Of a stretch of 61,026 nt of DNA, positions 2,582-58,982 are shown in pieces. The first letter of the stretch is position 1. Every line of letters begins with the position of its first letter. The translations under genes and the position numbers were made by a program. Source of the DNA: a virus; the IMG/VR virus record IMGVR_UViG_3300042691_012301, positions 1-61,026 of that record; one strand, given 5' to 3'. The notes below the pieces were generated by a model that ran no database searches, was not told the origin of the DNA, and saw only the letters and a list, made by a program, of their open reading frames with translations.

Positions 2582-2826
2582 AATTCTCCTCCCGATAGTT
2601 TAGGAATCAACCCGAACTGATTCTTGTGCGTGAGGCATAGAACACCGACATCGTTTCCTTCTTCGTCTTGCGATGGATATATTTCTACTCCATCATCCAA
2701 GGTGATAACGATTGTGCCGTAGTACCATCCGTTCATTTCGATTTCCTCTCTCGTCATAAATCTTACTGACTTGATGACCTTGCCGACCAACATCTGCTCG
2801 GCTTGTTTTGTCCAATAGTTTTTCAT
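2578..2826 (-). CDS. conserved phage hypothetical protein, 82 residues
   Basis: The protein reads as a small beta-rich domain with the pattern LVGKVIKSVRFMTREE...GWYYG...ITLDDGVEIYPSQDEEGND, which I associate with a conserved phage/bacterial hypothetical family containing a DDEGNDAG-type motif. It overlaps the gene before it (start inside that gene's end) and the small membrane gene after it by 4 bases. The function of the family is not known to me. Confidence 0.8.
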   Translation of the reverse strand: MKNYWTKQAEQMLVGKVIKSVRFMTREEIEMNGWYYGTIVITLDDGVEIYPSQDEEGNDVGVLCLTHKNQFGLIPKLSGGEL

Positions 2827-3203: not shown

Positions 3204-3224
3204 GTTATTTATTGTGTTAAGTTA

Positions 3225-3668: not shown

Positions 3669-3677
3669 TGTTTTAAA

Positions 3678-3959
3678 TTATTTATTGATTTCGATTAATG
3701 TTCCGTCCGCTTGTTCTTCGTAGTAGTAGTCACTATCTTCAATATCCCATTCAGTAAAGTAGTACTCTTCCTCGGCATATGCTTCGTCAAGAAGGAATTC
3801 ATCAGATAGTTCTTTGTACTCGTCAACATTCCTACTTCGTAACCATTGAATCACATCTGATTCATTCTCGAAGTAAAATTCTCCGTCAAAACAACAAAAG
3901 CCTCTATTCATTCCTTTGCCCGTAGCAGAATCTTTTCTTGCCCATTTAATTTTATCCAT
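3678..3959 (-). CDS. hypothetical acidic protein, 93 residues
   Basis: The N-terminal part is mildly basic (KIKWARKDSATGKGMNRGF) and contains a GMNRGFCCFDGEFYFENESD module. The C-terminal half is strongly acidic with many tyrosines (EEEYYFTEWDIEDSDYYYEE). Starts at ATG 3959 after an ATAAGACG context. Function unknown; the Asp/Glu/Tyr-rich tail is notable. Confidence 0.75.
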   Translation of the reverse strand: MDKIKWARKDSATGKGMNRGFCCFDGEFYFENESDVIQWLRSRNVDEYKELSDEFLLDEAYAEEEYYFTEWDIEDSDYYYEEQADGTLIEINK

Positions 3960-18384: not shown

Positions 18385-18587
18385 TCAGGATCTGTTGTTG
18401 TGCCTACAGTTGTTGGGTCTACATACACTGTGTCTCTTGGTATGTAGGTAGCCTTAAACATTTGGTGGTCTTCTTTTTGTACTGGGTGGTAGTTACTTAT
18501 ATCGCAACCTAATGCAAGGCAAGTTATGATAACCGACAATAAGAATATAAATATTTTTTTACTTTTTGTTGACATTATTTTGTTCAT
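18381..18587 (-). CDS. predicted lipoprotein, 68 residues
   Basis: An N-terminal basic start (MNKIMSTKSKKIF) leads to a hydrophobic helix and a lipobox-like CLALGC ending at Cys28. A Thr-rich mature part ends TTVGTTTDPE. It overlaps both neighbours: the methyltransferase upstream (29 bases) and the PP-loop gene downstream (4 bases). A phage lipoprotein could be an outer-membrane spanin, a superinfection-exclusion factor or an anti-receptor protein. Its distance from the lysis genes makes a spanin role less certain. Confidence 0.65.
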   Translation of the reverse strand: MNKIMSTKSKKIFIFLLSVIITCLALGCDISNYHPVQKEDHQMFKATYIPRDTVYVDPTTVGTTTDPE

Positions 18588-19959
18588 TAATTAAGTCACT
18601 TACTTCTTGAATTCTACCTCCTATCCAAGCCATCACAGGTACAGCCATTGAGTTGCCCATTGCTTTGTACCTTGGCCCATCTGGGGACTCTGGTTTTTTT
18701 CGGTATGGGATGTTTGTAAAGTTGTCGGGGAATCCTTGTAACCTCTCACACTCGACAGGAGTTAGTCTTCGAACTCTAGAGTTTTGGATTGTACCACCAG
18801 TATGGTTAATGTCAGAAGCGGAAGACGAGATAGTTTGAGAAGTTCGGTCATTAACGCTCATGTTGTACATATCAACGGCAATACCTTTTTCAGAAACAAC
18901 TAAGCCTCTTCCGTCTATCAAATCCTGGTTACCCATTCCTTTATAATCTCGCGCTAATAAAGATCCCATTGTTTCAGAATCATTTGGTGGCAACCACTTT
19001 GTTTCAGAAACTATTGGTGTGTTACCACCGCCTGTACCCCAACGAGATGTTACTGTACTACTCGTCTCTCCCATTTCCTTAACTCTGCTGTCATTAGGAT
19101 GATTTTCGTAAACATCTTTCTGAATTACCGCAGAGAAGTGTCCTTTGTCAGGCATATATTGATCGTGACAGCGAGTGGTTAGACTTGCGGCTGTTTGCCC
19201 ACCATCCCACCATGAGTCTGGTTCTACAACAGATACGGTTGATCTAACATCCCCAACATCAAAACAATTCAGAGTATTTGACACATCATCTTCAACCCAA
19301 GTTTCTAATCCGTCTTTGGTTGTTGCTCGGCTTGATTTACGGTATGTAGCAGGGCCTCCTTCAATCGATCGGGTAACTTTTTCCCTCTTACCTCTGCTCT
19401 CCGCAATATGCCTGCACAAGCTTTCTGACTCAAATAGAACCGCTGCGGCAGGTCTCCAGTCTCCAAGATATCCGACAACAAAGATTCTTCTGCGTCTTTG
19501 TGGGATTCCAAAGTGTTGAGCGTCAAGAATTCTGTAGGCGAACCCATACCCGAGTTCCCCCAACGCCCCGAGGAGGGAAGCAAAATCTTTTCCTCCGTTA
19601 CTTGACAAGACACCGGGGACATTTTCCCAAACGATCCACTGGGGTTTTGCTTTGTTAGCAATGCGACAGAATTCAAGGGCCAAGTTGCCACGAGGGTCTT
19701 CCATTCCTTTTCTGAGACCTGCAACGGAGAATGATTGGCAGGGAGTTCCTCCAACGAGAACATCGATAGTTGTTTCATTAAATATAGGGTTTGAGTGAAT
19801 TAAAGTCATGTCCCCTAAGTTGGGAACTTCTGGATAATGGTGCTGTAGGACAGCTGATGGGAAAGGTTCTATTTCTGAAAACCATTGCGCCTTCCAACCT
19901 AGTGGATGCCAAGCCATCGTAGCGGCTTCTACTCCCGAACATACTGATCCGTATCTCAT
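18559..19959 (-). CDS. DNA C5-cytosine methyltransferase, 466 residues
   Basis: All main motifs of a C5-methyltransferase are present in order: the AdoMet-binding CSGVEAA (motif I), GGTPCQSFS with catalytic Cys (motif IV, about residues 70-78), WENVPG (motif VI), QRRRR (motif VIII), then ECERLQGFPDNFT (motif IX) and AMGNSMAVPV (motif X). The long stretch between VIII and IX (about residues 190-400) is the target-recognition region. It methylates cytosine in DNA, probably to guard phage DNA from host restriction. No partner restriction enzyme is visible. Confidence 0.95.
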   Translation of the reverse strand: MRYGSVCSGVEAATMAWHPLGWKAQWFSEIEPFPSAVLQHHYPEVPNLGDMTLIHSNPIFNETTIDVLVGGTPCQSFSVAGLRKGMEDPRGNLALEFCRIANKAKPQWIVWENVPGVLSSNGGKDFASLLGALGELGYGFAYRILDAQHFGIPQRRRRIFVVGYLGDWRPAAAVLFESESLCRHIAESRGKREKVTRSIEGGPATYRKSSRATTKDGLETWVEDDVSNTLNCFDVGDVRSTVSVVEPDSWWDGGQTAASLTTRCHDQYMPDKGHFSAVIQKDVYENHPNDSRVKEMGETSSTVTSRWGTGGGNTPIVSETKWLPPNDSETMGSLLARDYKGMGNQDLIDGRGLVVSEKGIAVDMYNMSVNDRTSQTISSSASDINHTGGTIQNSRVRRLTPVECERLQGFPDNFTNIPYRKKPESPDGPRYKAMGNSMAVPVMAWIGGRIQEVSDLINEQNNVNKK

Positions 19960-25888: not shown

Positions 25889-25914
25889 AAAATGGGAACC
25901 GTTGCTCCCATTTT
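25889..25914 (+). terminator. rho-independent terminator after the metallophosphoesterase gene
   Basis: Stem AAAATGGGA/TCCCATTTT (25889-25897 with 25906-25914), 8-base loop. The symmetrical A and T runs could terminate on both strands. It removes any upstream start for the next gene, whose frame is open back to 25892. Confidence 0.75.
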
Positions 25915-25950
25915 CTGCACACAAATAAAGAACACAATAACAAAAATCAA

Positions 25951-25979
25951 GCATCAGAACGATGCTGTACAAAAGTACA
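25951..25979 (+). other. two back-to-back hairpins in the leader of the late operon
   Basis: GCATC-AGAAC-GATGC (25951-25965) is followed without a gap by TGTAC-AAAA-GTACA (25966-25979). They lie 38 bases before the ATG at 26018 and after the terminator at 25889-25914. No host-type promoter is clear here, so these may be part of a late regulatory element. Confidence 0.5.
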
Positions 25980-26017
25980 TCAATTCACGCACAAAAAACA
26001 CACTTAATATTTTCAAA

Positions 26018-26644
26018 ATGAAGTATTTGAATTATTTGCCTGTAGTTATGAAATCAAAGGAGCATCTAGCCGATGGTGTTGATGTTGGAGACACGAGAAT
26101 TCACATGGTAATTAGAACCGCTTCAGAAGAGGCTGACTATTGGACAAACACCGATTGTATTGTTTTTGAAGACTACGGTAAGTGGAAAAAAGGAGACGAA
26201 GTGTTTGTTAAGTACGTTGAAATTAGAGAGGTTTTTGGAGCATATAGTGAAGGTAAAAACAAGCGTATTATTGATGTTGGAGATCAGGAAGTTTTATTAG
26301 TTAGACCCGACCTTGTTTATTTAACAATTAGAGACGGAAAACTTATTCCTCAAGACGGATGGTGTTTAATTAAACAAGTTCCCGAAAAACCTAAAAGTTC
26401 TCTATTGATAATTCCAGAAGCTTTTGAAGAAAAATACAAGGAGTTTGAGTGGGAAGTTGTTGCGGTTGGAGGTTCTTCACCATCACATGAAATACTGTAT
26501 GGAAAAGATGCCGTTCCTGAAGTAGGTTCAATTATTTTAGGGAAAAAGAATTGTGGTATTCCTTTGGAAGCAGGTTTGAATAAGAAGTTAAAAGAAGAAT
26601 ACTATTTAATTAGACACAATGAAATTCTAGCGTATGAAGTTTGA
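26018..26644 (+). CDS. tandem GroES-like (co-chaperonin) protein, 208 residues
   Basis: I start at ATG 26018 (MKYLNYLPVVMKSKEHL), because the frame upstream crosses a terminator. The C-terminal half (from about residue 107) reads LIPQDGWCLIKQVPEK...LLIIPEAFEE...WEVVAVGG...VGSIILGKKNCGI...YYLIRHNEILAYEV, the GroES pattern. The N-terminal half ends KKGDEVFVKYVEI...DQEVLLVRPDLVYLTI, which matches the second half of the same fold. So two GroES-like folds are joined. Like T4 gp31 it could help host GroEL fold the capsid protein. This is inferred from pattern alone. Confidence 0.62.
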   Translation: MKYLNYLPVVMKSKEHLADGVDVGDTRIHMVIRTASEEADYWTNTDCIVFEDYGKWKKGDEVFVKYVEIREVFGAYSEGKNKRIIDVGDQEVLLVRPDLVYLTIRDGKLIPQDGWCLIKQVPEKPKSSLLIIPEAFEEKYKEFEWEVVAVGGSSPSHEILYGKDAVPEVGSIILGKKNCGIPLEAGLNKKLKEEYYLIRHNEILAYEV

Positions 26645-44064: not shown

Positions 44065-45513
44065 ATGGCATTAACACCGGGATTATATGTACCTCAAGGT
44101 CAAGTAGGAACAGGCTCAGCTTATGTGCATGAGATTAAAGATAGGTCAGATTATTTAGACACTATAGCTAAGGCTAATGAGAAAAAAAGACTAAGCGAGG
44201 AAAGGCAAATTGCTAAACTTAAAGGTTTTGATTACGGAAAAGTAACGGACCAAACAATGAAAGAGCATATCTCTCAAAAATATAAAGAGGGACTCGAGAC
44301 TTTTTCTAAAATAGTTGCCGCAGGTGGTGAAATTGATAATATCTCTACAGATGAGGGAATACAATATACTACATGGCAAAATCAAATTAAAGATGAGGCT
44401 GATACAGCAGCTCTTGCTGAGTCTAAAATCATAGATTTTCAAAAGCAAGTTTTAGCTGGTGCGAAAGATTTTGATACAGATTTATACTATGCGGTTTTAG
44501 ATAATTATGAAAACGCGAAAACCCCTGATGAAAAATTAGCAGCAACATTAGACGCTGATCCTTTATTATTAAAAACATTTGATTTTACCAAGTGGATTAA
44601 AGAAGAAATTGAGCCTGCTAAAACGGATAAAGAAATTACAGATTTAGGAGAGGATATTACAAAATATCAAGAGGTGTATAATAAAAAACTTGATGAAGTT
44701 CCAAAGATATTAGCGTCAAAAAGAGGGGTTGGATTGGCTAAAATAGCATGGAAAATGTACCACGACAGAGGTGATGAAGGGTTTCAACAAGCTAGTTTTG
44801 ATGACTATGTAAAAGAAGCTATTGACTCTCAAAGAAAAATAAGAGAAAGTAAAACAGAATCTCCTGCTCCTAAGTCTAATGTATTTAATATAAACACTGG
44901 CGGCGCAACTCCGTCAAAAGCCACTGTAGTTGATGTGCCTGCCGTTGATGTTGTTAAAATCAACATAGATGTGGCTAAAGCTGCTCAAGAGGGTTCTTTA
45001 TTTAATTACGAAAGTGACAATCCTAAAATTCCAAACGTAGTTATTAAAGGGAAAGGTAATAGACCAGAGGATTACGGTCTAAGTAGTGACTATGCTTATC
45101 CTGATCCTTCAGATAGAAATGCGATTATAATGCCTGCTGACCAATTACATAGATTAGAAAGTAATCACGTTACAGCAACCAGTATACAGCCAGACGATAA
45201 ATTTGCTACAGCTTTTGCAGGAAAAACATTTACTGACGAGAACGGAAATGCTACAAAAGGAAGTCCTTCTAAAATACTTGAAGACCAATTAGGCAACACT
45301 TGGTTAGTTTTAGTAGATGAAAAAGGAGGACAGAAAAAAGTTATCCTTAGGGTTGGTGGGTTGATGCAAACTTACACTAATAATAAAGGTGAAAATCAAC
45401 AACATCCATTTGTTGGAGTAGCTGCCCAAAACCAACAGGCAATTGAAAAAGCTCTAGGTGTTAACTTTACTGACTTCATGAAAGAATACGGCCCAAAGTC
45501 TAGCCTTAGATAA
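44065..45513 (+). CDS. putative internal/cargo virion protein, 482 residues
   Basis: Starts MALTPGLYVPQGQVGTGSAYVHEI. An N-terminal helical part (LDTIAKANEKKRLSEERQIAKLKGF) leads to a long charged helical region and an acidic, Thr-rich centre, then a beta-rich end (EDQLGNTWLVLVDEKGGQKKVILRV). Placed between the Gln/Ala-rich protein and the giant protein, it is probably one of the virion proteins that travels with the DNA. No enzyme motif seen. Confidence 0.6.
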   Translation: MALTPGLYVPQGQVGTGSAYVHEIKDRSDYLDTIAKANEKKRLSEERQIAKLKGFDYGKVTDQTMKEHISQKYKEGLETFSKIVAAGGEIDNISTDEGIQYTTWQNQIKDEADTAALAESKIIDFQKQVLAGAKDFDTDLYYAVLDNYENAKTPDEKLAATLDADPLLLKTFDFTKWIKEEIEPAKTDKEITDLGEDITKYQEVYNKKLDEVPKILASKRGVGLAKIAWKMYHDRGDEGFQQASFDDYVKEAIDSQRKIRESKTESPAPKSNVFNINTGGATPSKATVVDVPAVDVVKINIDVAKAAQEGSLFNYESDNPKIPNVVIKGKGNRPEDYGLSSDYAYPDPSDRNAIIMPADQLHRLESNHVTATSIQPDDKFATAFAGKTFTDENGNATKGSPSKILEDQLGNTWLVLVDEKGGQKKVILRVGGLMQTYTNNKGENQQHPFVGVAAQNQQAIEKALGVNFTDFMKEYGPKSSLR

Positions 45514-45583: not shown

Positions 45584-48500
45584 ATGGCAAATTTACAAGA
45601 CCTCTTTAACGAACTTCAAGCTGACGATAGAGTTTTAACTCCCGATACATTTGAGGAGTTTCAATCTAAAATGGAATCTCCTGAATACGCATCAAGAGTA
45701 AATGATGTGTTGAATAGATACGGATATGATGCAAATGCATACGAGGGTTTAAAAAAAAAAGAGGAGTCTATGGTCGAATCTGCTCCGCTATCTCAGCAGG
45801 ATTCAGAGCAGCCAAGCGAGACTACAGAGCCAACCCAAGAGGTTGGTACTGAGCCTGTAGAAGAAGCAATGAACCTTAATGAGGTTGATGTAAATCAATT
45901 CTCACAAGCCTTTAAAGCACCCGAAATCGAGATGCCTATTGCTGCTGTGGGGGTTAATCCTATTTCAGATAATCAAAATCAAAATGTTGTTAAGCCAGTT
46001 CAGAATCAAGTTGCAGAAACGCAACAAGATTTAGACCACCCTGTCTCTAAAATTGCTAACCTAGCCAAGAATTTAAAAGGCAAGTTAACAAACCATCCAT
46101 TCATGTCTATGTCTAAAGACATTGCTTTGGGTACTGCTGCTTTTTCTATGGAAGAGGATGAGGTTGAAAACACTCTAGACGCTCAAGAAGATATTGATAA
46201 AGACAAAGAGCCAAAAGACAAAAAGTTAAAAAGAAGAGATGCTAAAAACATTGCTGATGAAACAGGAATGGATTATAGTAACTACAATTATTTTTACAAC
46301 GCTTTAGGTAAAACTAAGATATACGGTATAAAAACGAATGCCGAAAAAGGTACTGTTGAATTGATTTATAAAAATCAAGATGATCCAGGTTCAAGAGCAA
46401 TAAAAACAGAAGTTCCAATTGGAGGTGCTACTTACAAACAATGGATTGAGCCGCAATTAGGTGGTGGCGGTACTAGTTTCTATGATTATAACGGAGATGA
46501 AAGTGGTTGGGATGATTTGAAAAAAGCTACACTTACCGTTTCCGGGTATAAGCCTAAAGTTCAAGGGCAGGAATATGAGGATAATCTTGACATTAACTAC
46601 TCTTCACACTTAGAAAAAACAAATAGACCTTTAACATATATAACTAATCCTGTTGCCATTCCAAGTGAAAAAGAAGAAAAAGATAAGACATTTATTGAAA
46701 AGGTAGTTGATTACACTAAAGGAAAAATTAGTGATGTAGAAAAGGGTGTTTCTAGAGCTAATGAATACCTGCAAGAAAAAGCAAAGAAAAGACAAGAGGA
46801 TATTGAAACATATAGAATTGCAGAACAAACTGTTCAAAACACTTCTTATGTAACAAAAGCAGACGATTCATTTAGAAACTCTCCATACAACAGCAGTTGG
46901 ACAAATGACATATTGGAGAAATATCAAATTCCAATCAGCGAATTACTTTTAGATGGTAACAAAGAGCAAATCTTAAACAAGATTGAGTTTGACTACCTAA
47001 AAGATTTCAACCCTAAAATAACAGCAGGTGATGTTAATGCTACAGGAATTCCTGGTCAAGAGTTAAGTCCTTTTGCTGAAGAGACAAGAGATGAATATGC
47101 GAAAAGATTAAAAGAAGCGAAGAGAGCAGAGGCTGAGAGATTATATAACATGGCAAGGAGAGATGCTCAATTTCATTTAGCAGAACTTGCTATTATGAAT
47201 CAAATTGAGAAAGGAAATCCTAAGTTTAGATATGAGGATGTAGAAAGATTAAGAAAGATTAAGAACCAAGGTTTAGAATCTGCAAATGTATCTGACTATG
47301 CTACAGGCTACGAAGATCAGGCAGGTATTCATGGTTTGACAGATTTAGCAGAAGAAAACTATAGTGCCGATATTAATATAGCAAATGCAAAATTTGCTAG
47401 AAACATGATAGATTACGCTAATAGCGAGTATACTGGTTATTACAAGTCCCTAGCAGGAATAAGTGCTATGAACTTAGAGGAAAAGGGAATCTCTAATGAT
47501 TCAAGAGCATTGAACGGAAGAAAAAAAGAACTTGCTAGTAAAGTAGAAGAGGCTAAGAAAAGAAACAATATTCCCGATGATGCTGTTGTAAAAAACTCTG
47601 TAAAAGGTGCAAAAGCTGTTGTAACTGAAATGACAGCAATTGACAAACAGATTGAAGAGAAGACTAATCAATACAACGCAATGTTGGTTGAAGAAAACGG
47701 TCAGAAAGTTTTTAAAAGTGAGGATGATTTTGCGGCAGGAGAAAAGATAAGAGGTGAAGTTGAGGCTCTTCTTCAAAAGAGAGAGGAGGTTAAGTTGAAG
47801 ATGAATGAGTTTAGTCCTGTACTTGATGTTGTACAAAAATATTCAGATGAGACGAGAGACGCTTATAATGAGATGATGACCATTGATAGCGAGTTAAGCA
47901 GATTCGGATCTGATAAAGATGTTAAACTATTACAAGACTTATCTCCAACACTAGAACTTATTGAGGGTTATGACTTGAATAGAGAGATGACCATTGACCC
48001 AAAGACAGGAAGACCTTATGCCTGGGTTACGGCAGGTAGAAAAACAAGAGGAGAACTAGGTGAATTTACCACTTTAAATACATACGAAGATAATTTAGAG
48101 GCATCTGAAAAGGCAGAGGCTGAAAACGACACTTGGGTTGAAGCGTTTGGTAAAGGTGTTTGGGGAACTGTGAAAAACATGGGGGGGAGTACGTTGCTTA
48201 CAGGAGAATACTTATCTTCTTTTGTAGTGCCTGGTGAAAGCTTTTTAAATGACGATCCTACCACATGGACTGCTGTGGATAACAGAAAAGCTATGTACGA
48301 AAACAAGATGGAGAGAATAGGTCGAGAGACTGTCAATCCGGCTTACGAAACATGGGGTGCTAAATGGATTGTAGGGTCTTTAGGAAGCATAGCACCTTAT
48401 ATATATGCATCTTGGGCAGGTGGTGGTAGTGGAGGTTTTTTCCAAATTGCGAAAAGCCAAGGTTTAAAGGCAGCAGCTAGTAAAACATTGACAAGCCAAA

Positions 48501-51500
48501 CAACTGCTTTTTTCACTACACTTGCTGTAGGTAATTACACTAAAGAATTTGAAGACGCGGGTTATGATCCGGCTACAGCGTTATTAGGTGGGTCGATGTT
48601 AGGAGCAGCAACATCTTGGATGGAAAGTTTATTCCCAGAACTTCCAGAATTTGAAAGACTTGCCATGCAAAGTGCTGTGAAAAAAATAGTTACAGAAGGT
48701 ATCAAAAATGGATTATCTCCACAACAAATCACTAGACAATTGTTAAATGGTTTTTGGAAAACAACCGGGAAGTCTATTGTTAATGTAGCTACAGGATTTG
48801 CTCAAGAGGGTGGTGAAGAAGGTGGTACGTTTATAGTTGAGCAAGGAGTAATGTCAGCGGCAGGTGTTAGAGAGAATGAATTTATAGACCCAATGACAGG
48901 TAAATTTGGGTCTACAACAAAAGAGTTTTTAACAACAGTTGGTTTAGGTGGTATAACAGGAATATTCACGTCAGGTGGTAGTGTTTTAAAAACATTAATT
49001 CAAGAAAAAAGTACCAATCTTGTAGGGAAACAAGCTCAATTATCTATTGCTGAAAATTATGATGATGCTGTTAGTTTAATGAGTTCAGATAATGATAAAT
49101 TCAAAGAATCTGACGCGTTTAAACAAGTTAAAAACATTAAGGATAGATACGATGAGATGGCATCTAATCCTAAATTCCAAGAGTTTGATGATGTGGCGAA
49201 GGGAGAGATTCTAAACGCTAATATTGAACTCACTAAAATGATGGATTCCGACAAGACTTTGCAGTCGAAAGGAATTACAGACATCAAATTGCAAGAAGAT
49301 ATTAAAAACACTCAAGATGCTTTGAATAAATTATTTGAAGTTTCTCAAGAAAGAGTGGACCAAAGAAATGAGTTGAACAGCCAGTTAAAAGAATTGGGCG
49401 TAACAGCGTTTCAAGTTAATGCTGAAGGTAAGGTATCAGGAATGCAGTTTGACGAAATGACTACAACAGAGGAGCAAAATGAAAACACTCCAAAGGCTGT
49501 TGAATTAATTGAAAAAACAAATACTAAAACACAAGAAGATGCCGTACAAAAGCCAAGCACAACAGAAGTTCTTCCACGCCAACAAGGCGAAACTACAGAG
49601 ACAGGGGGTAAACGTGAAGGAGTGGGACCAAGCGTCAAAGGGCAAGAAACTGCCCAAGAAGGTGGGAAGGAAGAAATAATAGCGACTCCTCAAGAGAAGA
49701 AAGAAACGGAGGCGATGCAAACAGACATCGACCAAGTTCAGCAGTCAACCGGGACAGTTATTAATTTAAACGAGGATGGAACTCTTACTATCAACGCTCC
49801 TCAAAAAGGTGGTCAGTCTAAAAAAGATGCAGCCATTGAGAACGCTAAACAAGAGTTAGCAAACCTCGGGTATAACGTAGAGAGTCGTGTTACTCAACCT
49901 GCTCAACAACAAACCGAAGTAAGTGAGGAGGAAGTATCTCCATTAAAAGATGTGGAGAGTACGGCTAAAGCATTAGAAGAATCTGACCTTGAAGCTTTGT
50001 TCGAAAAAACAAAAAACAAAAAATACTTTAGAGGTCAACAAACAGAAGACTTGCCAGAGAAAGATATTTTCATATCACCTAATGAGTTAGTTGGTAAGAT
50101 GTACACAAAGGGAAAAGGTGTGTTAAAAAAATTAGCATTAAAAGCATCTAACCTATTTGATATAGATACTAAGGTTACTGAAGATTTAAACAATAAACTT
50201 ATTGAATCTTACAAAACCTTGGGAGTTCCAGTACCTAGCGATATTCTAAATGGATCGTTTATTGGCAAATCTTACGATCAGTATTTAAAAGAAAACCCTG
50301 AATTCAGAAGAGCTTTAGAATCAATGGGATTTGACGGCTTGTTAAATAATTTCACTCGTTTGAATTTACCTTCTCCAAAGCAAGAGGTAATTGTTTTTGA
50401 CAAGGCTAATGTATCCGAGATAAATTCAAATTTAATTTCAGAAGCCTACCATGCGGCTAAAGCAGACGGAAGTAATCCTGAGTTAGTAGAAGCGGTAGAA
50501 TCTCTACTAAATGAAAGCAAACCTCAATTCCAAAAAAACAAAGAAACTGTAGAAGATAGTACAGAGGCTATTGTTGATGAAATGAATAAGATGGGGGGTG
50601 TGAATATTGAAGTTGATGTAAATAAAGGTTTGAGAGATAAAGGTAAATTAAACATTAAATCTTTCCTCAATAGAGTTGGCATCATGCTAAAACCTAAAGA
50701 GGTTAAGTTATCTGATTTTGCAGGAAAACCAATCATGGTTACTATATCAGATGAGTTAACTACAGGAGAAATTATCAATCCAATTACAGGAGAGAAAATT
50801 GACAATCTAAAAGGTGGTTTAGGGTTTAACTACTCAGAAGGAAATGAAGGACACGCATGGGCATATACTAATGAAAAAGTAGCGATGGATGTATTAAATG
50901 TTGCAAAACAAATGTATGCCGCAAACCCATCTCTATACCCTGACGGAATTGTTCCAGTTGCTGTTGTTAAAATGGGTAAATCTGCAATGATTTCAAATGA
51001 AGCTGTAGTTAGACAGGTAATTCAGAATCTAAAAACATCAAAAATACCAAGTAAAAACAAGAAGGAAGCCTTTAAACTCTTGAGTCAAGATATTAAAGCT
51101 CAAATTCAAGTTGTAAAAGAAAGAATTGATAAGGCGCAATCGCAAGACAAACAAGCAAATCAAGCTGATGCAAACATATTAAAGGGGTACAATGATATAT
51201 TAGATTTAATTTCTAAATCAAAAACATTTGATGAGGTTGTTAACAAGATAACAGATTTGAATATAGGTGTAAGACCTTTATTGATATCAAGAATTACATC
51301 AGGAAGTGCAGATTTAATACCTAAAGATAATGCACTTTCAGCAGACAAGCCAGTTGCTAAAGCGTTAATGAATGGATTGCCAAAAGCAGAATACAAAAGA
51401 ATTCACCTCGGGCATCTAGTTAGTAATATTACGGAACCTGCTCTTAAAGAAGTTCCCGATAAACACATCATGGCTTTTGTTGGAATAGATGCAAGAGCAG

Positions 51501-54500
51501 AAACTCCTATAAAGTCAGATACACATCCTAACTATCCATATGTATTGAAAGGAAAAGGGTTAGGAATTTTATCTGAAACAGTTCACATAGCTAATGCCAT
51601 ACCTGCGGCATATGGAAATATTGTAGGTAAACTTATAGCAGCAGAACAAAAAGGAGGTCGTGTTTCACAAAACGAAGCTGTATCAAGAGCTTTGCCTGCC
51701 GCCTTAAACAACGCTATATTCAGAAATAAACCTATAAGTGAAATTGATGAGAACGTAAGTAGGCTTATTGGGTTCCTTCAATTATCATTTCCGAATACTC
51801 AATTCTTTACAGATAAAGAATCTTGGAAAGATATCATGAATTCTGACGGTGTTAAGAAGTATCTGAAAAAAGGAGATGTTGTATACGGATTAACGATGGA
51901 TGGTAAAATCTATTTGAATCCTAACTTTTCTAACTTCAATACCCCTATTCACGAAACAGGTCACTTGTGGGTAGATATGATTGAAGAGTCTAGTCCAGAG
52001 TTATTTCAAAAAGGTTTAGAATTAGTTGAAGGATCTAAAGAATTAGCGAGTGCAATTAAAGTTTACGGAGATACCGTACAAGCAAGAAAAGAAGCCTTGG
52101 CTATGTTGATTGGAAATAGAGGGGAAACATTAACAAACGCTGCTCAAAAAAGTAAATTTAAAGAGTGGTTGTTAGCGTTGTGGAAATATGTTCAATCAAA
52201 TTTCCCATCTCTTCGAAATATGAAGCCAAGTGAAGTTGAAAATTTAACATTAGAACAATTTATCAACGGAGCTTTACGAGATATCTTAGGGGCAAAAGAA
52301 TTAGAAACAGAAAAAGCCGCCAAAAAAAGAGCTGGAAAAGAAACAAAACCTCAATTCCAAATTGATATCGAGGCTCAAGAAAGTCCTCTGTACCAAAGAA
52401 GAACTAAAGAGGATGTGCCATTTGTAGCGGATAGCGAAATTAAAAATTTGGTACAAGACGGAAAAGGTTTAGAAAGAGAAAGGGATATTTTAAACAAAGG
52501 ATACAAGTTAAAAAAAGGGGAAGTGGTGACTTCTCGAATCAATTTGAATTTCTTGAGGTTTACAGGAATACCAGCCTTGTCTATTCATAAAGGAAAATTA
52601 GGAGAAGTGTTGACTTACGCTGGAAGCATTACTCTTAAAGACGTTACTTTCCCTGTTCAGCAAGGTGCTAGAGAAGCAATTGCTAAAGAAGCTGCTGAAA
52701 AAAATACTCAAGGTGGGTCTAAAAAGACTTCAATGGCAGGAGGTCAAGGTTCTTATATTGAAGTAGAACCAAACTTTGATGGAGTTGAACTTTCCTTCAA
52801 CCCTGCTGTTGGACATTTATTTGTAGACTCTGAAGGGAGGGCAGTAATGTCTGCGGAGGAAGTTACATTTGTAGGATTTAAGGCTTACGCTCGTGGTAAG
52901 ATATCTTACTTCGAAGACTTTGAAGACCCAAGAAACCCCAAGTATACAGCACCATCTCAAACCAAGTTTGCTAAAACAAAAGACGAACTTGTTAGAATGG
53001 CTGACGATGTAGAGACTGGCAACACAACCGTTGAAGAGGTTGGAGTTCCAGAGGTAGCACCTGAAGTTGTTGCCGAGGCAATTACCGCTTTCTCTGACGC
53101 TATTGAAAATGGTTCTACTATTGAAGAGGCTACAGAAGAGGTTGCTATTGTTTTAGAAAATAGTGCAGAGGAAGGTCCTCGTAAAGTAACTCCTCCAACA
53201 GAAAAGACAGAGCCTGTTTCTGCAAATAAGAAAGAGGAGAAGCCTAAGACAGAAAAGAAAGAGAAGACAGAAGGTCCTACACTTAGTGATCCTGAAACTA
53301 TCGTTGCCTTCACCATTGCAGGAAACGCTAAATCTATCATGGATGTCGAAGGTGTTTCTCAAGCAGATGCGGTTAATAAGGCTGTCCTTGAGATGAGCAA
53401 TGGGGACCAAGAGTCTGCTAATAGATACTTGGCTCAACCAGGTGTTAAAGAGACTATCGAGAAGAGAATCAAACAGATGAAGGCGAAGACCGCTAGAGAG
53501 TTGGAGGCTGAATCTAATAAAGTTACTATTAGTGAACGCAAACTTCTTTTGGATAGAGTTAAGGCTGAAATTAAAGCTGCTCTTGAAGGTCGTAAGGAGG
53601 GTAAAAAAGAAGGTGTAGAACAAGCGCAAGAAAAGGCTCAAAAGACTATTGACTCTTTAAACAAGAAGTTGGAGGAAGGTAAGATAACCAAGAAAGAACT
53701 TCAAGACAGAATTAAAGAACTTGGTTACAACATCCGATTTGAAGCAGGCCTCGCTAGACTTGCAGGTGAGAAGACCGGAAAGTCTTTGGGTAAAAAGTTC
53801 GGAGAGTTTGTTGGTTACTTTAAAGGACTGAAGGCAGGAAGAGCAGAACAGAGAGGTTTAGGTGCTTTGGTATCTGAATATATCAAAGATGTAGTGGATA
53901 ACGAGTTCGGTAAGAAAGGAGCAATTAGTCCTGCTACTCTAAAAGCAATTTCTCGCAGAGCTGCAACCATCTCTAACCAAAAACAATTGGATGCCTTTGT
54001 TTCTTACTTAGATAAAATCATTGCCAACAGAAGATTGGCAGAGGGCATCAATGAAATCCAAAGACAACAAAAGAAATTGTTGAACAAGATTGGATATCAG
54101 TACACAACACAAATGAAGCAGTTTGCAAAGTTTGATTTGTACACAGCGGATGGTGACTTGGCTTTTGACATGAATACTTTAGAGCAGTATTTACAGGCTC
54201 TTCAAGACTTGAATTTAAAAGTACCTAACATTGGCAAAATGGTGCAGTTGTTTGATGGAATGAACGCCATCAATCAAAGCAATTTACCTGCTGATTTAGA
54301 TGCTGTTGAAGAGTTCAAGAAATATCAAGACGCTTCTACTAAACTATTTCAAAATACCGTTATTAACAACTTTGATGACTATAAGAAATTCAAAAGAGAA
54401 GTTAATAAATATATCAGAGCCGTAAACAATTTACTTGATTTAGGAGCAATCACAGAACTTCAGCACCAATCATTCTTAAACTCAGTTGTTGATGGAGATG

Positions 54501-57500
54501 CAAAATATAATACATATGCTGGTCAGTTTCAGGATGAGATTGACGCATTGAAAAAAACTATCATTGATGGAATTGTAGACAAAAGCACTAATAGCCTTTG
54601 GGATTCTATTAAGGATTGGTTGACCAACTCTCCTAACAACTTCACTCGTAATCAGAAGAAACTAATCGAACAACTTCAAAGAGCAAAGGCTGATAACTTA
54701 ATGACTTTAAGTCTTGACGATCTTGACTTATTAAATCAAGTAGTTACTCAAATTGCAGAGAATGGATTTGTTGATGAGAAAAACTTGCGAAGCATTTTGG
54801 ATCGTGCAGAAATCAGAGGGGAGAAGATAGGTGAACAACTAATCTCTCAATCCAATAAAATGAGTTCTAAATACAAAGGTGTAAATGCCTTTATGAAGAT
54901 GTCTTTAGACCTACTTAACAAGAGTGTTGTTTTCTGGGAATCAAGATTAGGCATGAAAGAGAATGGTGCGTTCAGAAAGAATGTCATTGATCCTATAACT
55001 AACGCTATCAACGGATGGACTGAAGACACTCAAAGAATTCTCAAAGGTTACCGCGACTCTGTTGTTAAGTTGAAACTAAAAGGAAGTTACAAAGTAAAGA
55101 CAACAAAACTTGAAAAGGGACAAGTGGTTCCAACTGGCAAGACTCGCAAGATTTCTAAGGAGGCTTACAGAAGAGTTAAGATAGGTGTTATCGGTCACAT
55201 CCTAGATAACGCTTGGAACGCAAAGCAAAAGAAGAAAGTTGTTAATGATTGGTTGGGAGATCAATTGAGAGACAACTCTGCAAGAAATGCTATGGCTGAC
55301 GAAAGTATTGACGAGTTAGACATCGTGCAAGATGTTTACAACGATTTACTTCAGCAGTTTTCTGACGCAAACGGAAATCTTGACCATATGGCTATTTTGG
55401 AAGCGTTTGAAGATCCTCAGAGTCAAAGTTCTGTTATGAGTGCAGATGAACTTGAGTATTATGACGCTGCAAGAACTGCATTACAGGAGTCTGGTGAGTA
55501 TATCAATAGTGCCAACTCAATCAGAAACAAGCAACACGAATTGAATCCATACTATATGCCTCGTCAAAGCGTAGGAGAAGGAATGAGTTCAATCACATCT
55601 AATGACGTTTCGTACAACCAGGAATTGGGTACAGCTCTTCGATCATCAGCATCTTACGCTCGTACATTACAAGTTCCGAAAGAAGCAATCAGATTTAATG
55701 TTGATAGACTTGTTTCAGTTAACGTAACTGAAGGTCTTCGTGATTACTATTTAACTGATGCAAAGAGATATGTGAATGAGGTATTCTCTAACGCTAGAGA
55801 AAATGCTACAAACGAGGAAATGGATGTGTTAAGAAATCTTCAAAGATTAAACAACACTCGCATTCCGTTTGCTTTAAACAAAGTGAAACCTGTGATGATT
55901 GCATCTCCTTTAATGAATTTGTTCTACACAAATGCTTTGATTGGAGTCCACAGAACTCCTGTTGAATTTTTAAACAACGTAATATCATATTCATTGGGCA
56001 ATAGAAGTTCTAAAAGTCTTACACTTCGATTGTCGTCAAAAGAAAAAGAGCAAACAAATAATTTGCTGTCAGAGTTTCGGTCATCAGTTCAATTCGATAG
56101 AACTATGTTTGAAGATTCAGAAAAAGAAACTCGTTTTATAAGCAAAAAGTGGTATCAGTCTTCTAAGGGATTAAATGGAATGATAAGCACTCAAAAAGCA
56201 ACTCAATTATTGATACCTGCCCTAAACAATATAACCGCATTTATGCGGAAGGGTGAGTGGAAGACTCAATTTGATAGAGCCTTTGAAAATATTACAGGTG
56301 AAAAGTTCAACTATGAAAAACACTTTGTTAAAGAGAAGGCAAAATACTTTGACGACATGGAACAAGCCGCGTCTGATGCTGACTTTAATGTAAGAAGAAT
56401 TATAAAAGGTGGTAACAAATCAGAACAAAGACAATTTGTTCAATGGGTACCGTTTGTTAAGAAAGGAAGAGTTGAAGCGGATGGTTTTGCGGCTTCATTC
56501 CTTGGAATGTTCTCAGGATTTATTGGGCATGACGTTGACAATATGACTATTGGTTTACGCAAGGCTGTTAAATCGGGTGAAGTCAAAGATGGTGTGACTC
56601 AGTTCTTAGGTGCGGCGATGAGACTTTCGTTATATCCTACATTAATGTTGGTTGTAAAGTCTTTAAGCAAAATGTACTTTGGGGATGACGATGAAAAAGA
56701 AAATGGAAAAGAAACATTAGACCGCTTAAAGACTCCTGAAGGATGGGCAGACTTAGGTATATATACAGCAAGACAATTAACTGCTACAACAGTCATGGGT
56801 AAATATGCCTTTGGTGGTAAAGTAATTGGAAATTTATTATTACATCTTTCTTACACTATGACAGAGGACAGAAGGCAAAGAAGGTTTATAGAAGATACAA
56901 TGAGAGAATTGTATTTCACAGACCCTATTGACCTCAAGTATTTTAACAAAGATGACTGGCAATTGCAAATGACAGCAAATTTAGAGCCTATATCTAAAAT
57001 GTTAGCTGATGACATTAAAAACCTTGTTGATGACATTAACAACAAGGGAAGAGAAAAAGTCACTATCTATGACATATACGAATGGACTCAACAAACAGAT
57101 GAAGGTAAGCAATGGTTATACATGGCTAATAGCATCCTGACATTAGGTCAATTAGCTTCTGTAACATATTTTGGAACAGCAATTCCACTAGTTGATGATA
57201 CTATAAAATTAATAGAGGATGAGCTTTCTAAAAAAGAAATGAACAAAGACACTACATATGAAACACCAGGAGGTCAGAAAATAGACATGAGGGACTTGGT
57301 CTTAGACTCTGACGGAAGAGTAGAAATTAATATCCCTGGTATCACTCCAAGAGATCGAGATAGAATGTCTGACCTAGCAACTGAAAAGTTTAATAATATA
57401 CTTAAATCAATGGGTGTAGCAGGATCTCCAGGAAAGATATACGCAAAACTAAAGTTTATGACAGACTTGGCTAAATATGAAGCTGCTAAAGAACTTGGCT

Positions 57501-57898
57501 ACTCAGACAAGAAATGGAGTGACTCTGAAGGAGAATTAGTTTCTGCTAAACCAGAATGGGAATCTTACGCGGCATATGAGGCTGAACCTGAGGATTTAAA
57601 AGAAAAACTTCATACAGACATTGCTAAAGGAAAACAATTAAGCTTTACTCAAAATCTTAAAGAAAAGAGAAGAATTGAAGACTTTATGTTTAAAGCAATG
57701 GATAACAACCCTCAGTTGAAACAAGCATATAAAGATGCTCCTGATGGCGGTAAATTAGGTGTAAGGGAGTATTACAAAGACTTATATTTATACGAAAAAT
57801 ATAGAGTAACCGATAGACCTAAGGAGAGAGATTATTTCAAATATGATACTCAAGGTAAAATAAAACAGACTGAAAGCATCCCACAAGAAGAAAATTAA
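45584..57898 (+). CDS. giant polyvalent virion protein with ART-like and zincin-like domains, 4104 residues
   Basis: A huge modular protein. Residues about 1-180 are acidic, followed by a basic/helical domain. About 930-1140 is a Gly/Ala/Thr-rich stretch that may insert in membranes. About 1480-1610 (FRGQQ...DIFISPNELVGKMY...LESMGFDGLL...EVIVFDKANV) resembles the ADP-ribosyltransferase-like domain of polyvalent proteins. A further domain lies at 1650-1850. HETGHLWVDM (2123-2132) with a downstream RKEALAML is a zinc-metallopeptidase motif. A conserved-looking domain follows at 2265-2440. A long basic coiled coil (about 2630-2770) and helical C-terminal third complete it. It is likely injected into the host as cargo. 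Confidence 0.8.
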   Translation: MANLQDLFNELQADDRVLTPDTFEEFQSKMESPEYASRVNDVLNRYGYDANAYEGLKKKEESMVESAPLSQQDSEQPSETTEPTQEVGTEPVEEAMNLNEVDVNQFSQAFKAPEIEMPIAAVGVNPISDNQNQNVVKPVQNQVAETQQDLDHPVSKIANLAKNLKGKLTNHPFMSMSKDIALGTAAFSMEEDEVENTLDAQEDIDKDKEPKDKKLKRRDAKNIADETGMDYSNYNYFYNALGKTKIYGIKTNAEKGTVELIYKNQDDPGSRAIKTEVPIGGATYKQWIEPQLGGGGTSFYDYNGDESGWDDLKKATLTVSGYKPKVQGQEYEDNLDINYSSHLEKTNRPLTYITNPVAIPSEKEEKDKTFIEKVVDYTKGKISDVEKGVSRANEYLQEKAKKRQEDIETYRIAEQTVQNTSYVTKADDSFRNSPYNSSWTNDILEKYQIPISELLLDGNKEQILNKIEFDYLKDFNPKITAGDVNATGIPGQELSPFAEETRDEYAKRLKEAKRAEAERLYNMARRDAQFHLAELAIMNQIEKGNPKFRYEDVERLRKIKNQGLESANVSDYATGYEDQAGIHGLTDLAEENYSADINIANAKFARNMIDYANSEYTGYYKSLAGISAMNLEEKGISNDSRALNGRKKELASKVEEAKKRNNIPDDAVVKNSVKGAKAVVTEMTAIDKQIEEKTNQYNAMLVEENGQKVFKSEDDFAAGEKIRGEVEALLQKREEVKLKMNEFSPVLDVVQKYSDETRDAYNEMMTIDSELSRFGSDKDVKLLQDLSPTLELIEGYDLNREMTIDPKTGRPYAWVTAGRKTRGELGEFTTLNTYEDNLEASEKAEAENDTWVEAFGKGVWGTVKNMGGSTLLTGEYLSSFVVPGESFLNDDPTTWTAVDNRKAMYENKMERIGRETVNPAYETWGAKWIVGSLGSIAPYIYASWAGGGSGGFFQIAKSQGLKAAASKTLTSQTTAFFTTLAVGNYTKEFEDAGYDPATALLGGSMLGAATSWMESLFPELPEFERLAMQSAVKKIVTEGIKNGLSPQQITRQLLNGFWKTTGKSIVNVATGFAQEGGEEGGTFIVEQGVMSAAGVRENEFIDPMTGKFGSTTKEFLTTVGLGGITGIFTSGGSVLKTLIQEKSTNLVGKQAQLSIAENYDDAVSLMSSDNDKFKESDAFKQVKNIKDRYDEMASNPKFQEFDDVAKGEILNANIELTKMMDSDKTLQSKGITDIKLQEDIKNTQDALNKLFEVSQERVDQRNELNSQLKELGVTAFQVNAEGKVSGMQFDEMTTTEEQNENTPKAVELIEKTNTKTQEDAVQKPSTTEVLPRQQGETTETGGKREGVGPSVKGQETAQEGGKEEIIATPQEKKETEAMQTDIDQVQQSTGTVINLNEDGTLTINAPQKGGQSKKDAAIENAKQELANLGYNVESRVTQPAQQQTEVSEEEVSPLKDVESTAKALEESDLEALFEKTKNKKYFRGQQTEDLPEKDIFISPNELVGKMYTKGKGVLKKLALKASNLFDIDTKVTEDLNNKLIESYKTLGVPVPSDILNGSFIGKSYDQYLKENPEFRRALESMGFDGLLNNFTRLNLPSPKQEVIVFDKANVSEINSNLISEAYHAAKADGSNPELVEAVESLLNESKPQFQKNKETVEDSTEAIVDEMNKMGGVNIEVDVNKGLRDKGKLNIKSFLNRVGIMLKPKEVKLSDFAGKPIMVTISDELTTGEIINPITGEKIDNLKGGLGFNYSEGNEGHAWAYTNEKVAMDVLNVAKQMYAANPSLYPDGIVPVAVVKMGKSAMISNEAVVRQVIQNLKTSKIPSKNKKEAFKLLSQDIKAQIQVVKERIDKAQSQDKQANQADANILKGYNDILDLISKSKTFDEVVNKITDLNIGVRPLLISRITSGSADLIPKDNALSADKPVAKALMNGLPKAEYKRIHLGHLVSNITEPALKEVPDKHIMAFVGIDARAETPIKSDTHPNYPYVLKGKGLGILSETVHIANAIPAAYGNIVGKLIAAEQKGGRVSQNEAVSRALPAALNNAIFRNKPISEIDENVSRLIGFLQLSFPNTQFFTDKESWKDIMNSDGVKKYLKKGDVVYGLTMDGKIYLNPNFSNFNTPIHETGHLWVDMIEESSPELFQKGLELVEGSKELASAIKVYGDTVQARKEALAMLIGNRGETLTNAAQKSKFKEWLLALWKYVQSNFPSLRNMKPSEVENLTLEQFINGALRDILGAKELETEKAAKKRAGKETKPQFQIDIEAQESPLYQRRTKEDVPFVADSEIKNLVQDGKGLERERDILNKGYKLKKGEVVTSRINLNFLRFTGIPALSIHKGKLGEVLTYAGSITLKDVTFPVQQGAREAIAKEAAEKNTQGGSKKTSMAGGQGSYIEVEPNFDGVELSFNPAVGHLFVDSEGRAVMSAEEVTFVGFKAYARGKISYFEDFEDPRNPKYTAPSQTKFAKTKDELVRMADDVETGNTTVEEVGVPEVAPEVVAEAITAFSDAIENGSTIEEATEEVAIVLENSAEEGPRKVTPPTEKTEPVSANKKEEKPKTEKKEKTEGPTLSDPETIVAFTIAGNAKSIMDVEGVSQADAVNKAVLEMSNGDQESANRYLAQPGVKETIEKRIKQMKAKTARELEAESNKVTISERKLLLDRVKAEIKAALEGRKEGKKEGVEQAQEKAQKTIDSLNKKLEEGKITKKELQDRIKELGYNIRFEAGLARLAGEKTGKSLGKKFGEFVGYFKGLKAGRAEQRGLGALVSEYIKDVVDNEFGKKGAISPATLKAISRRAATISNQKQLDAFVSYLDKIIANRRLAEGINEIQRQQKKLLNKIGYQYTTQMKQFAKFDLYTADGDLAFDMNTLEQYLQALQDLNLKVPNIGKMVQLFDGMNAINQSNLPADLDAVEEFKKYQDASTKLFQNTVINNFDDYKKFKREVNKYIRAVNNLLDLGAITELQHQSFLNSVVDGDAKYNTYAGQFQDEIDALKKTIIDGIVDKSTNSLWDSIKDWLTNSPNNFTRNQKKLIEQLQRAKADNLMTLSLDDLDLLNQVVTQIAENGFVDEKNLRSILDRAEIRGEKIGEQLISQSNKMSSKYKGVNAFMKMSLDLLNKSVVFWESRLGMKENGAFRKNVIDPITNAINGWTEDTQRILKGYRDSVVKLKLKGSYKVKTTKLEKGQVVPTGKTRKISKEAYRRVKIGVIGHILDNAWNAKQKKKVVNDWLGDQLRDNSARNAMADESIDELDIVQDVYNDLLQQFSDANGNLDHMAILEAFEDPQSQSSVMSADELEYYDAARTALQESGEYINSANSIRNKQHELNPYYMPRQSVGEGMSSITSNDVSYNQELGTALRSSASYARTLQVPKEAIRFNVDRLVSVNVTEGLRDYYLTDAKRYVNEVFSNARENATNEEMDVLRNLQRLNNTRIPFALNKVKPVMIASPLMNLFYTNALIGVHRTPVEFLNNVISYSLGNRSSKSLTLRLSSKEKEQTNNLLSEFRSSVQFDRTMFEDSEKETRFISKKWYQSSKGLNGMISTQKATQLLIPALNNITAFMRKGEWKTQFDRAFENITGEKFNYEKHFVKEKAKYFDDMEQAASDADFNVRRIIKGGNKSEQRQFVQWVPFVKKGRVEADGFAASFLGMFSGFIGHDVDNMTIGLRKAVKSGEVKDGVTQFLGAAMRLSLYPTLMLVVKSLSKMYFGDDDEKENGKETLDRLKTPEGWADLGIYTARQLTATTVMGKYAFGGKVIGNLLLHLSYTMTEDRRQRRFIEDTMRELYFTDPIDLKYFNKDDWQLQMTANLEPISKMLADDIKNLVDDINNKGREKVTIYDIYEWTQQTDEGKQWLYMANSILTLGQLASVTYFGTAIPLVDDTIKLIEDELSKKEMNKDTTYETPGGQKIDMRDLVLDSDGRVEINIPGITPRDRDRMSDLATEKFNNILKSMGVAGSPGKIYAKLKFMTDLAKYEAAKELGYSDKKWSDSEGELVSAKPEWESYAAYEAEPEDLKEKLHTDIAKGKQLSFTQNLKEKRRIEDFMFKAMDNNPQLKQAYKDAPDGGKLGVREYYKDLYLYEKYRVTDRPKERDYFKYDTQGKIKQTESIPQEEN

Positions 57899-57930: not shown

Positions 57931-58428
57931 ATGAAAAAACCAGAGAAATTATCTCAACCAGTTATAAACTTACTCCTGCCTCGTTTGCAGGATGAGTTTA
58001 ATGCGGCATATTTTTATCGCTCTGCATCTAACTGGTGTAAAAATGTAGGTTACTTTATAGCCGCTGAGTTCTTTGCAAAGGAGTCAGAGGATGAGTTTGG
58101 TCACGCCAAGAAGATTGAGAACTACTTAGTCGATTGGAATGTGACTCCTGCTCTTCCAACGATTCCAAAGCCAACACTTGATTTCTCTAATTTAGAGCAG
58201 GTAATTATCATGGCTTATGAAATGGAGTACGCTCTTTACGAAGAGTATGAAGACACGAGCATGAAGATCTTTAAGACAGGAGACCTTTGCGTGTTTGACT
58301 TCCTCCAACAATATCGTGTTGGTCAAAAGGAGTCAGTTGCCGAGTACAGCGACAAGTTGAATATGCTTGAGGGTACAAACACAGGAAGTAAGTTCGAAAT
58401 GTTAATGCTTGAGAAAAAATTATTCTAA
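57931..58428 (+). CDS. ferritin-like protein, 165 residues
   Basis: The four-helix ferritin pattern with ferroxidase residues in place: DEFNAAYFYRSASNWC (E22), AEFFAKESEDEFGHAKK (E55 and H58, the E-x-x-H pair), MEYALYEEY (E99 region) and FLQQYRVGQKESVAEY (Q132, E134). The central NW-P-LP-IP-P loop and the length (165) match bacterial ferritin (FtnA). Ferritins oxidise and store iron. In a phage late region it could package iron or protect DNA, but that is inference. It shares one base with the next gene. Confidence 0.88.
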   Translation: MKKPEKLSQPVINLLLPRLQDEFNAAYFYRSASNWCKNVGYFIAAEFFAKESEDEFGHAKKIENYLVDWNVTPALPTIPKPTLDFSNLEQVIIMAYEMEYALYEEYEDTSMKIFKTGDLCVFDFLQQYRVGQKESVAEYSDKLNMLEGTNTGSKFEMLMLEKKLF

Positions 58429-58982
58429 TGAAAGCACCGAGTTACAGAGAGTTAAAAGAAGTTGCGCTAAAGAAAGGATACCAATGGTTGCCTTTCCAAC
58501 TTGTAAACATTCGCTCCGTTGCGGACAAGCCAAATGAGTTCGATGATTTGTTGGGGATTGTGGATGGTACAAATGTTATATGGCACACTGGGACAACTAA
58601 TCCCGGTGTTCATTGGTTAAAGAATCTTCTTAACCCAAAGGGTGCTGCTGTTCTTGCAGAAGGTCAGCACTTAAACGCTTGGGTAATTGGAAAGCATAAG
58701 GGTCAGTACGAGGCGTTGGTTCAGTACGCTCCTCTTCCTGTTTACAGAGACGGAAATAAGAACGACAAGAGTGAGCAGGTAGGCAAACCTATCTATGGTC
58801 AATACGGAATTAATATCCATCGCGCAAATCCAAACGCAATTAGCAAGATAATTGACAAGTGGAGTGCAGGATGTCAGGTAAGAAATAACCCAAAGGAACA
58901 CGATGAGTTTATGAACCTTTGTAAGAATAGTGGGGTTAAGTATTTTTCATGCATATTGTTTAACGAAAAAGATTTTTTATAA
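58428..58982 (+). CDS. cell-wall hydrolase candidate, 184 residues
   Basis: Starts MKAPSYRELKEVALKKGYQWLP and contains GINIHRANPNAISKI...WSAGCQV. The HR-x-N-P...W-S-A-G-C-Q pattern, with a His and Cys pair near a strand-turn, is the pattern I associate with phage endolysins of the L,D-transpeptidase/carboxypeptidase-like (YkuD-type) fold. Location right before two small holin-like genes supports a lysis role. No signal peptide is seen. Other cell-wall families remain possible. Confidence 0.7.
   Translation: MKAPSYRELKEVALKKGYQWLPFQLVNIRSVADKPNEFDDLLGIVDGTNVIWHTGTTNPGVHWLKNLLNPKGAAVLAEGQHLNAWVIGKHKGQYEALVQYAPLPVYRDGNKNDKSEQVGKPIYGQYGINIHRANPNAISKIIDKWSAGCQVRNNPKEHDEFMNLCKNSGVKYFSCILFNEKDFL

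What the first reader, a model, noticed from the sequence alone, without database searches (positions are those of the whole stretch)
45584..57898. 4104-residue polyvalent protein combining ART-like and zinc-peptidase-like domains
One gene is 20 percent of the window. Several parts resemble effector domains known from polyvalent proteins of phages and conjugative elements: an ADP-ribosyltransferase-like region near 1480-1610 and a HExxH peptidase near 2123. Long helical and possibly membrane-active parts suggest a delivery device plus payload.
Basis: partly seen in the sequence, partly recalled or inferred. Interest (0 to 1): 0.6.

Follow-up and report, generated by a model that had tools for sequence, protein, structure and literature searches.

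The report
Phage giant protein with swappable effector slot
This uncultured phage (probably of Bacteroidota bacteria) encodes a 4104-residue protein, most likely carried in the particle and injected into the host, that combines a protein-cutting enzyme with an ADP-ribosyltransferase-like part sitting in a slot where close relatives swap in quite different enzymes.

Summary
The 4104-aa gene is real (one intact frame, homologues in dozens of phages). The HExxH at 2123 is a true zincin: both His, the Glu and a downstream Glu are invariant in 35 relatives, and AlphaFold folds a conserved ~400-aa domain (X) plus zincin confidently. The ART-like region does not hit Pfam ART-PolyVal, but its profile matches ART-PolyVal cassettes well above shuffles. 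Its canonical active-site His and Tyr appear to be Arg and Phe, so activity is uncertain. Membrane activity is not supported; virion packaging is inferred from gene context.

Beyond the finding: the ART-like cassette lies between two conserved peptide tags, LKDVESTAKALE and ISEAYHKAKADGSNPELVKAVE. The tags bracket 36 unrelated cassette families (ART-PolyVal, NlpC/P60, GNAT, JAB and others) across 59 giant phage proteins. Two pairs of near-identical proteins differ chiefly in this region: evidence of modular exchange. A second motif, P-[KRQ]-F-[RQSK], flanks the X-zincin block on both sides and may mark self-cleavage sites. Neither is mentioned in the main text of the founding polyvalent-protein paper; the downstream tag is absent from deposited phages and plasmids. 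Best reading: a self-processing polyvalent ejection protein with an exchangeable effector slot.

The parts
45584..57898 (+). 4104-aa polyvalent ejection-type protein (P0001)
   Evidence: intact ORF; homologues P0002-P0008
45584..45778 (+). N-terminal leader aa 1-65 ending in KKKEE (aa 57-61)
   Evidence: KKK[DE][DE] within the first 130 aa in 17 of 115 giant proteins against 0.004 expected per 130 aa; also in Gundel_1 structural protein
48161..49153 (+). Gly/Ala-rich N-terminal module aa 860-1190, weakly conserved
   Evidence: weak hits L036 and L017; no strong transmembrane helix
49943..49978 (+). upstream tag LKDVESTAKALE, aa 1454-1465
   Evidence: shared before unrelated cassettes; 0 of 79 control giants
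49982..50434 (+). ART-like effector cassette, aa 1467-1617
   Evidence: 63-66% identical blocks in otherwise mostly unrelated P0007/P0008; profile match to ART-PolyVal cassettes
50435..50509 (+). downstream tag ISEAYHAAKADGSNPELVEAVESLL, aa 1618-1642
   Evidence: alignment A5; 59 distinct proteins
50519..50542 (+). boundary motif 1, KPQFQKNK, aa 1646-1653 (predicted processing site)
   Evidence: pLDDT<50 linker just before the fold
50555..51727 (+). domain X, aa about 1658-2048, conserved, no match in PDB
   Evidence: A4 and model m430432ae4f86; PDB no hit, viral hits
51728..52327 (+). zincin metallopeptidase, HETGH aa 2123-2127, third ligand candidate E2170
   Evidence: invariant columns H485, E486, H489, E532 of A3/A4; fold
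52346..52369 (+). boundary motif 2, KPQFQIDI, aa 2255-2262 (predicted processing site)
52592..52876 (+). Phage_L5_gp82-like domain aa 2337-2431, also found N-terminal to the core in P0004
   Evidence: PF25735 E=1.1e-5 (sub-threshold); P0004 842-964 E=0.011
53828..57253 (+). C-terminal module aa about 2749-3890
   Evidence: L046 E=2.5e-43, L110 1211-column alignment E=5e-31
44065..45513 (+). 482-aa protein directly upstream, possible partner cargo protein
   Evidence: gene order; similarly placed 500-740-aa ORFs precede giants in L002, L003, L006/L007, L096; no INPHARED match

Best explanation
The gene encodes a virion-carried, ejected polyvalent protein of a podovirus-like phage, probably of Bacteroidota. 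Inferred path: it is made late with the structural genes, packaged (perhaps through its N-terminal leader), and extruded into the host ahead of or with the DNA. The zincin next to domain X then cuts at the P-[KRQ]-F-[RQSK] motifs on either side of the X-zincin block, separating the effector half, which carries an ART-superfamily cassette, from the C-terminal delivery half. The cassette sits in an exchangeable slot defined by two peptide tags, through which relatives swap effector enzymes. Shown here: the ORF, conservation of zincin residues, the tag pair, cassette replacement between near-identical proteins, and positional enrichment of the boundary motif. Inferred: packaging, ejection, cleavage, ADP-ribosylation, and any role of the tags beyond marking the slot.
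For: Zincin residues invariant in 35-36 aligned relatives, fold confident. Boundary motif: a PSSM trained on left flanks scores right flanks of full cores at median 6.3 against 1.6 bits background, MWU p=2e-12, and both window copies lie in low-confidence linkers just outside the fold. Slot: 59 distinct proteins with the downstream tag, 46 with the upstream tag by HMM 19-330 aa before it, 0 of 79 control giants with the upstream tag. 52 cassettes in 36 clusters on 22 backbone groups. Swaps: L125/L152 about 91% identical on both sides, L147/L151 79% and 92%, with unrelated cassettes between the tags. ART: hhalign 30.0 against at most 17.1 in 60 shuffles; ART-PolyVal E=1.8e-15 in the same slot of L104. 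Structural context: TerL, portal and virion proteins by PHROG; related portal in 17 of 27 tag-bearing records; Gundel_1 gp074 annotated structural.
Against: No proteomics; Gundel_1's 'structural' label was not traced to mass spectrometry in its paper. Pfam ART-PolyVal does not match the cassette and the His and Tyr appear replaced. AlphaFold of the cassette failed (pLDDT 49). The boundary motif is not enriched beside the tags, so release of the cassette itself is not explained by it. Only 14 of 53 left and 12 of 84 right flanks carry the strict motif, and relatives are not independent. Most tag-bearing proteins have no HExxH in the stretch held.
Confidence: 0.55

Rival explanations
1. It is mainly a structural ejection/channel protein (like T7 gp15/gp16 or crassvirus cargo proteins); the ART-like cassette is a degenerate, non-catalytic remnant.
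For: Replacement of the HYD His and Tyr by Arg and Phe in all three members; large C-terminal module; podophage ejection proteins are large cargo in the capsid (PMC10172136).
Against: The cassette is 63-69% identical across otherwise largely unrelated proteins, so it is probably under constraint; the slot in relatives holds many enzyme families.
Confidence: 0.2
2. The zincin cuts host proteins or other virion proteins, not its own chain; the flanking motif is only a domain-edge sequence.
For: N4 vRNAP, which also has an MPTase domain, is packaged unprocessed (PMC5512222). The motif is absent or degenerate in many relatives.
Against: A shared motif on both sides of the protease block, tightly positioned (10-18 aa before, 9-16 aa after), in linkers.
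Confidence: 0.3
3. The two tags are halves of one small helical domain into which enzymes are inserted, acting as a docking or extrusion handle; exchange follows from ordinary homologous recombination in neighbouring sequence.
For: Near-empty forms with only about 20-36 aa between tags exist (L107, L109, L113, L119, L124, L127, L154). Codon identity is 54% against 40% expected, so conservation is mainly at protein level.
Against: No structure available; this overlaps with the main explanation rather than excluding it.
Confidence: 0.4

Closest known systems
Polyvalent proteins (Iyer et al. 2017, PMC5512222)
   Same: Giant multidomain phage protein with zincin-like MPTase, ART-type domain and other effectors; encoded beside late structural genes.
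   Different: The paired peptide tags, cassette exchange in one slot and the motif flanking the MPTase block are not mentioned in the paper's main text (search for linker, conserved motif, flank; supplements not read).
ART-PolyVal (PF18760, Tox-ART-HYD2 clade)
   Same: C-terminal GxDG...EVIVFD core, same slot as bona fide members.
   Different: Not detected by the Pfam model; H to R and Y to F at the apparent active-site positions.
Gundel_1 gp074 / Pachyviridae structural giant (NC_062747)
   Same: KKK leader, zincin core region, preceded by a ~500-aa protein.
   Different: 2482 aa, GNAT instead of ART, no domain X match, no tags found.
Crassvirus cargo proteins and N4 vRNAP
   Same: Very large virion-internal proteins ejected by short-tailed phages.
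   Different: No RNA polymerase was recognised here; no close sequence similarity found.
Polymorphic toxin systems (from memory: marker motifs such as VENN before swappable toxin domains)
   Same: Constant backbone plus exchangeable effector next to a conserved marker.
   Different: Here the effector is bracketed on both sides and internal, in a phage virion-type protein.

Membership tests
Polyvalent proteins | Several disparate effector domains in one large polypeptide | tested here: met
   zincin, ART-like cassette, gp82-like domain, domain X
Polyvalent proteins | Zincin-like MPTase with HExxH and downstream Glu | tested here: met
Polyvalent proteins | Encoded with phage structural genes | tested here: met
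   TerL, portal, virion proteins upstream
Polyvalent proteins | Packaged and injected with DNA | not testable with these tools
   needs virion proteomics
ART-PolyVal (PF18760) | Match to the Pfam model | tested here: not met
ART-PolyVal (PF18760) | H-Y-D active site | tested here: not met
   YFRG and IFISPN in place of YHG and YF; only the D of GFDG kept (definition in PMC5512222). Placement of H and Y rests on an eye alignment.
ART superfamily (fold level) | Profile similarity to known ARTs | tested here: met
   hhalign score 30.0, E=5e-4 over 41 columns, shuffles at most 17.1
ART superfamily (fold level) | Predicted ART fold | tested here: inconclusive
   pLDDT 49
LPD38 | Match to PF18857 in the C-terminal part | tested here: inconclusive
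   no match, but no control rang either

The most novel reading that the evidence does not exclude
Uncultured phages, probably of Bacteroidota, share a standard effector slot: two conserved peptide tags inside giant ejected proteins mark where effector domains are exchanged between phages, and a zincin with its own flanking sites separates the payload after delivery. The window shows an ART-like payload in that slot.
Probability: 0.55. Interest if true: 0.78.

Novelty: new variant of a known kind. Interest (0 to 1): 0.62.

Why it matters
The tags give a sequence handle for finding phage effectors by position rather than by similarity: 36 cassette families were bracketed in 59 proteins, most with no Pfam match. 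The flanking motif turns the 2017 proposal that zincins process polyvalent proteins into a specific, testable cleavage prediction. Together they suggest how short-tailed phages diversify injected weapons while keeping the delivery protein constant.

Tried and rejected
Direct Pfam and PHROG scans of the protein (only PF25735, sub-threshold). LPD38 and ART-PolyVal searches of the record (no match). Small proteins L037/L039/L003 as ART homologues: alignments looked like chance. ART block in 396 Bacteroidota genomes: none. PF18760 in 148 Bacteroidota genomes rang nowhere, controls included. PDB fold search of X-zincin: no hit with E<0.1. ART model too poor for fold search. Tags as DNA recombination sites: synonymous sites diverge, so unlikely. 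Tags as RF-type cleavage sites: motif not enriched there. The [RQ]F[RQE] motif over whole proteins is not enriched (154 against 189 expected); only its position is. The tag in host genomes: 10 of 396 weak partial hits, most covering only part of the tag, taken as unrelated. Membrane-active region: no support.

Full report
Observation. The gene at 45584-57898 is one intact frame of 4104 codons, 20% of a 61,026-bp IMG/VR virus record that is identical with the window. Genes before it encode TerL (E=8.5e-53), portal (8.7e-48) and several virion structural proteins by PHROG; replication genes lie on the other strand. Relatives come from Bacteroidota phages or assemblies: Tenacibaculum phage Gundel_1, podovirus ctfjg026 from spring water, and genome contigs mostly of Bacteroidota. 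The host is therefore inferred, not shown.

Family. A core of about 600 aa (window aa 1650-2250) is shared at 30-52% identity with giant proteins of 2000-4900 aa in more than 60 viral and genome contigs; the more distant ones share only the zincin part. In alignments of 36 and 35 rows the two His and the Glu of HExxH and a downstream Glu are invariant. AlphaFold gives about 90 pLDDT across most of residues 20-610 of the segment. The first ~400 aa (domain X) precede a typical zincin arrangement: strands, HExxH helix, Glu helix. Foldseek finds no PDB match (best E 0.14; the query carried a disordered tail, so this is not strong evidence of a new fold) but does find other phage proteins.

ART-like part. 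Pfam does not recognise it. A 63-69% identical block occurs in two other giants, P0007 (which also has RadC, E=1e-19) and P0008, while the rest of these proteins is unrelated or only weakly similar. With tags removed, the three-sequence profile matches a profile of five slot cassettes taken as ART-PolyVal at hhalign score 30.0 (E=5e-4, 41 columns); 60 column shuffles reach at most 17.1, and cassettes without ART features at most 18.4. Pfam identified five ART-PolyVal cassettes in the set; L104 (E=1.8e-15) and L125 (0.0066, sub-threshold) were confirmed individually, the other three were chosen by reading. The match covers the GFDG...EVIVFD core. The HYD definition is from PMC5512222; here H and Y appear as R (YFRG) and F (IFISPN), read by eye. 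Fold prediction failed. So: ART superfamily likely, activity open.

The slot. The block ends at two peptides. A search with the C-terminal half brought 25 loci in which the same downstream tag follows quite different sequence, and an upstream tag precedes it. A wider scan gave 59 distinct proteins. The upstream tag was found in 46 by HMM and in several more by eye; 79 control giants (219k residues) have none at 8 bits or more. The HMM was trained on the same proteins, so the control and the swaps matter more than the count. The first scans used exact seeds such as AYHKAKA, which inflates apparent identity. Cassettes fall into 36 clusters and the proteins into 22 backbone groups; where no upstream tag was found the cassette was cut at 200 aa, so a few of these clusters may be linker rather than domain. 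Pfam finds ART-PolyVal in five, NlpC/P60 in two, GNAT and JAB (several below gathering cut-offs); kinase-like (L151), zincin-like (L147, L155) and ParB-like (L106, L165, L187) readings are by eye. Strongest evidence: L125 and L152 are about 91% identical over aa 1-1476 and from 1936 to the end, share both tags, and carry ART-PolyVal-like and NlpC/P60-like cassettes respectively. The aligned blocks stop some 150 aa before the upstream tag in L125 and about 20 aa before it in L152, so the left junction lies upstream of the tag there. L147 and L151 are 79% identical up to about aa 1918/1954 and 92% identical from the downstream tag on; a 40-aa block around the upstream tag is 62.5% identical, and the cassettes are unrelated. 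Exchange of the cassette region is thus shown; that a junction falls exactly at a tag is shown on the right side only. Mean codon identity in the tag is 54% against 40% expected, so conservation is chiefly of the protein. The downstream tag is absent from 50,697 phage and 72,556 plasmid records; 17 of 27 tag-bearing viral records hold a portal related to the window's.

Boundary motif. KPQFQ occurs just before X and just after the zincin in the window. The strict motif lies 10-18 aa before X in 14 of 53 and 12-16 aa after the zincin in 12 of 84 relatives, against 0.018 expected per 115 aa. A PSSM built from 26 of 34 distinct left flanks was then applied to right flanks: median 6.3 against 1.6 bits for 30 full cores, p=2e-12. 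Background windows came from the same proteins; deduplication by shared 9-mers leaves homologous sequences in, so the p-value overstates independence. Cleavage before Phe would suit many zincins (general knowledge). This is a prediction, not a demonstration. The motif is not enriched beside the tags.

Leader. KKK[DE][DE] near aa 50-80 is found in 17 of 115 giants against 0.004 expected per 130 aa, including Gundel_1 gp074; a packaging role is conjecture.

Comparison. Iyer et al. proposed that zincins process polyvalent proteins and that ARTs modify host proteins (PMC5512222); this protein fits. [quoted passage not shown] P0007, from an IMG/VR contig, may be an exception, but its phage nature was not checked. 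Their main text has no occurrence of linker or conserved motif and nothing like the tags. Supplements were not read, so novelty is stated with that reserve.

Noticed in passing
window 57931-58428 (+): A 165-aa ferritin-like protein (PF00210, E=4e-21) is encoded directly downstream of the giant gene; unusual beside phage structural genes.
   Followed up: partly
window 18559-19959 (-): 466-aa C-5 cytosine DNA methylase (PF00145, E=3e-59).
   Followed up: no
window 58428-58982 (+): 184-aa protein matching phrog_3000 (3e-32) and an endolysin family (phrog_33083).
   Followed up: no
window 25892-26644 (+): 250-aa protein whose C-terminal part weakly matches a GroES-like PHROG (5.6e-4); a chaperonin cpn10 is also a core gene of Pervagoviridae (PMC8776804).
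   Followed up: no
L095 aa 2260-2364 (P0007): RadC-like JAB domain (E=1e-19) inside a giant protein of a viral contig, following two consecutive ART-like segments; RadC was said to be confined to conjugative-element polyvalent proteins.
   Followed up: no
window aa 2337-2431 and P0004 aa 842-964: Phage_L5_gp82-like domain at different positions relative to the core, another shuffled module of unknown function.
   Followed up: partly
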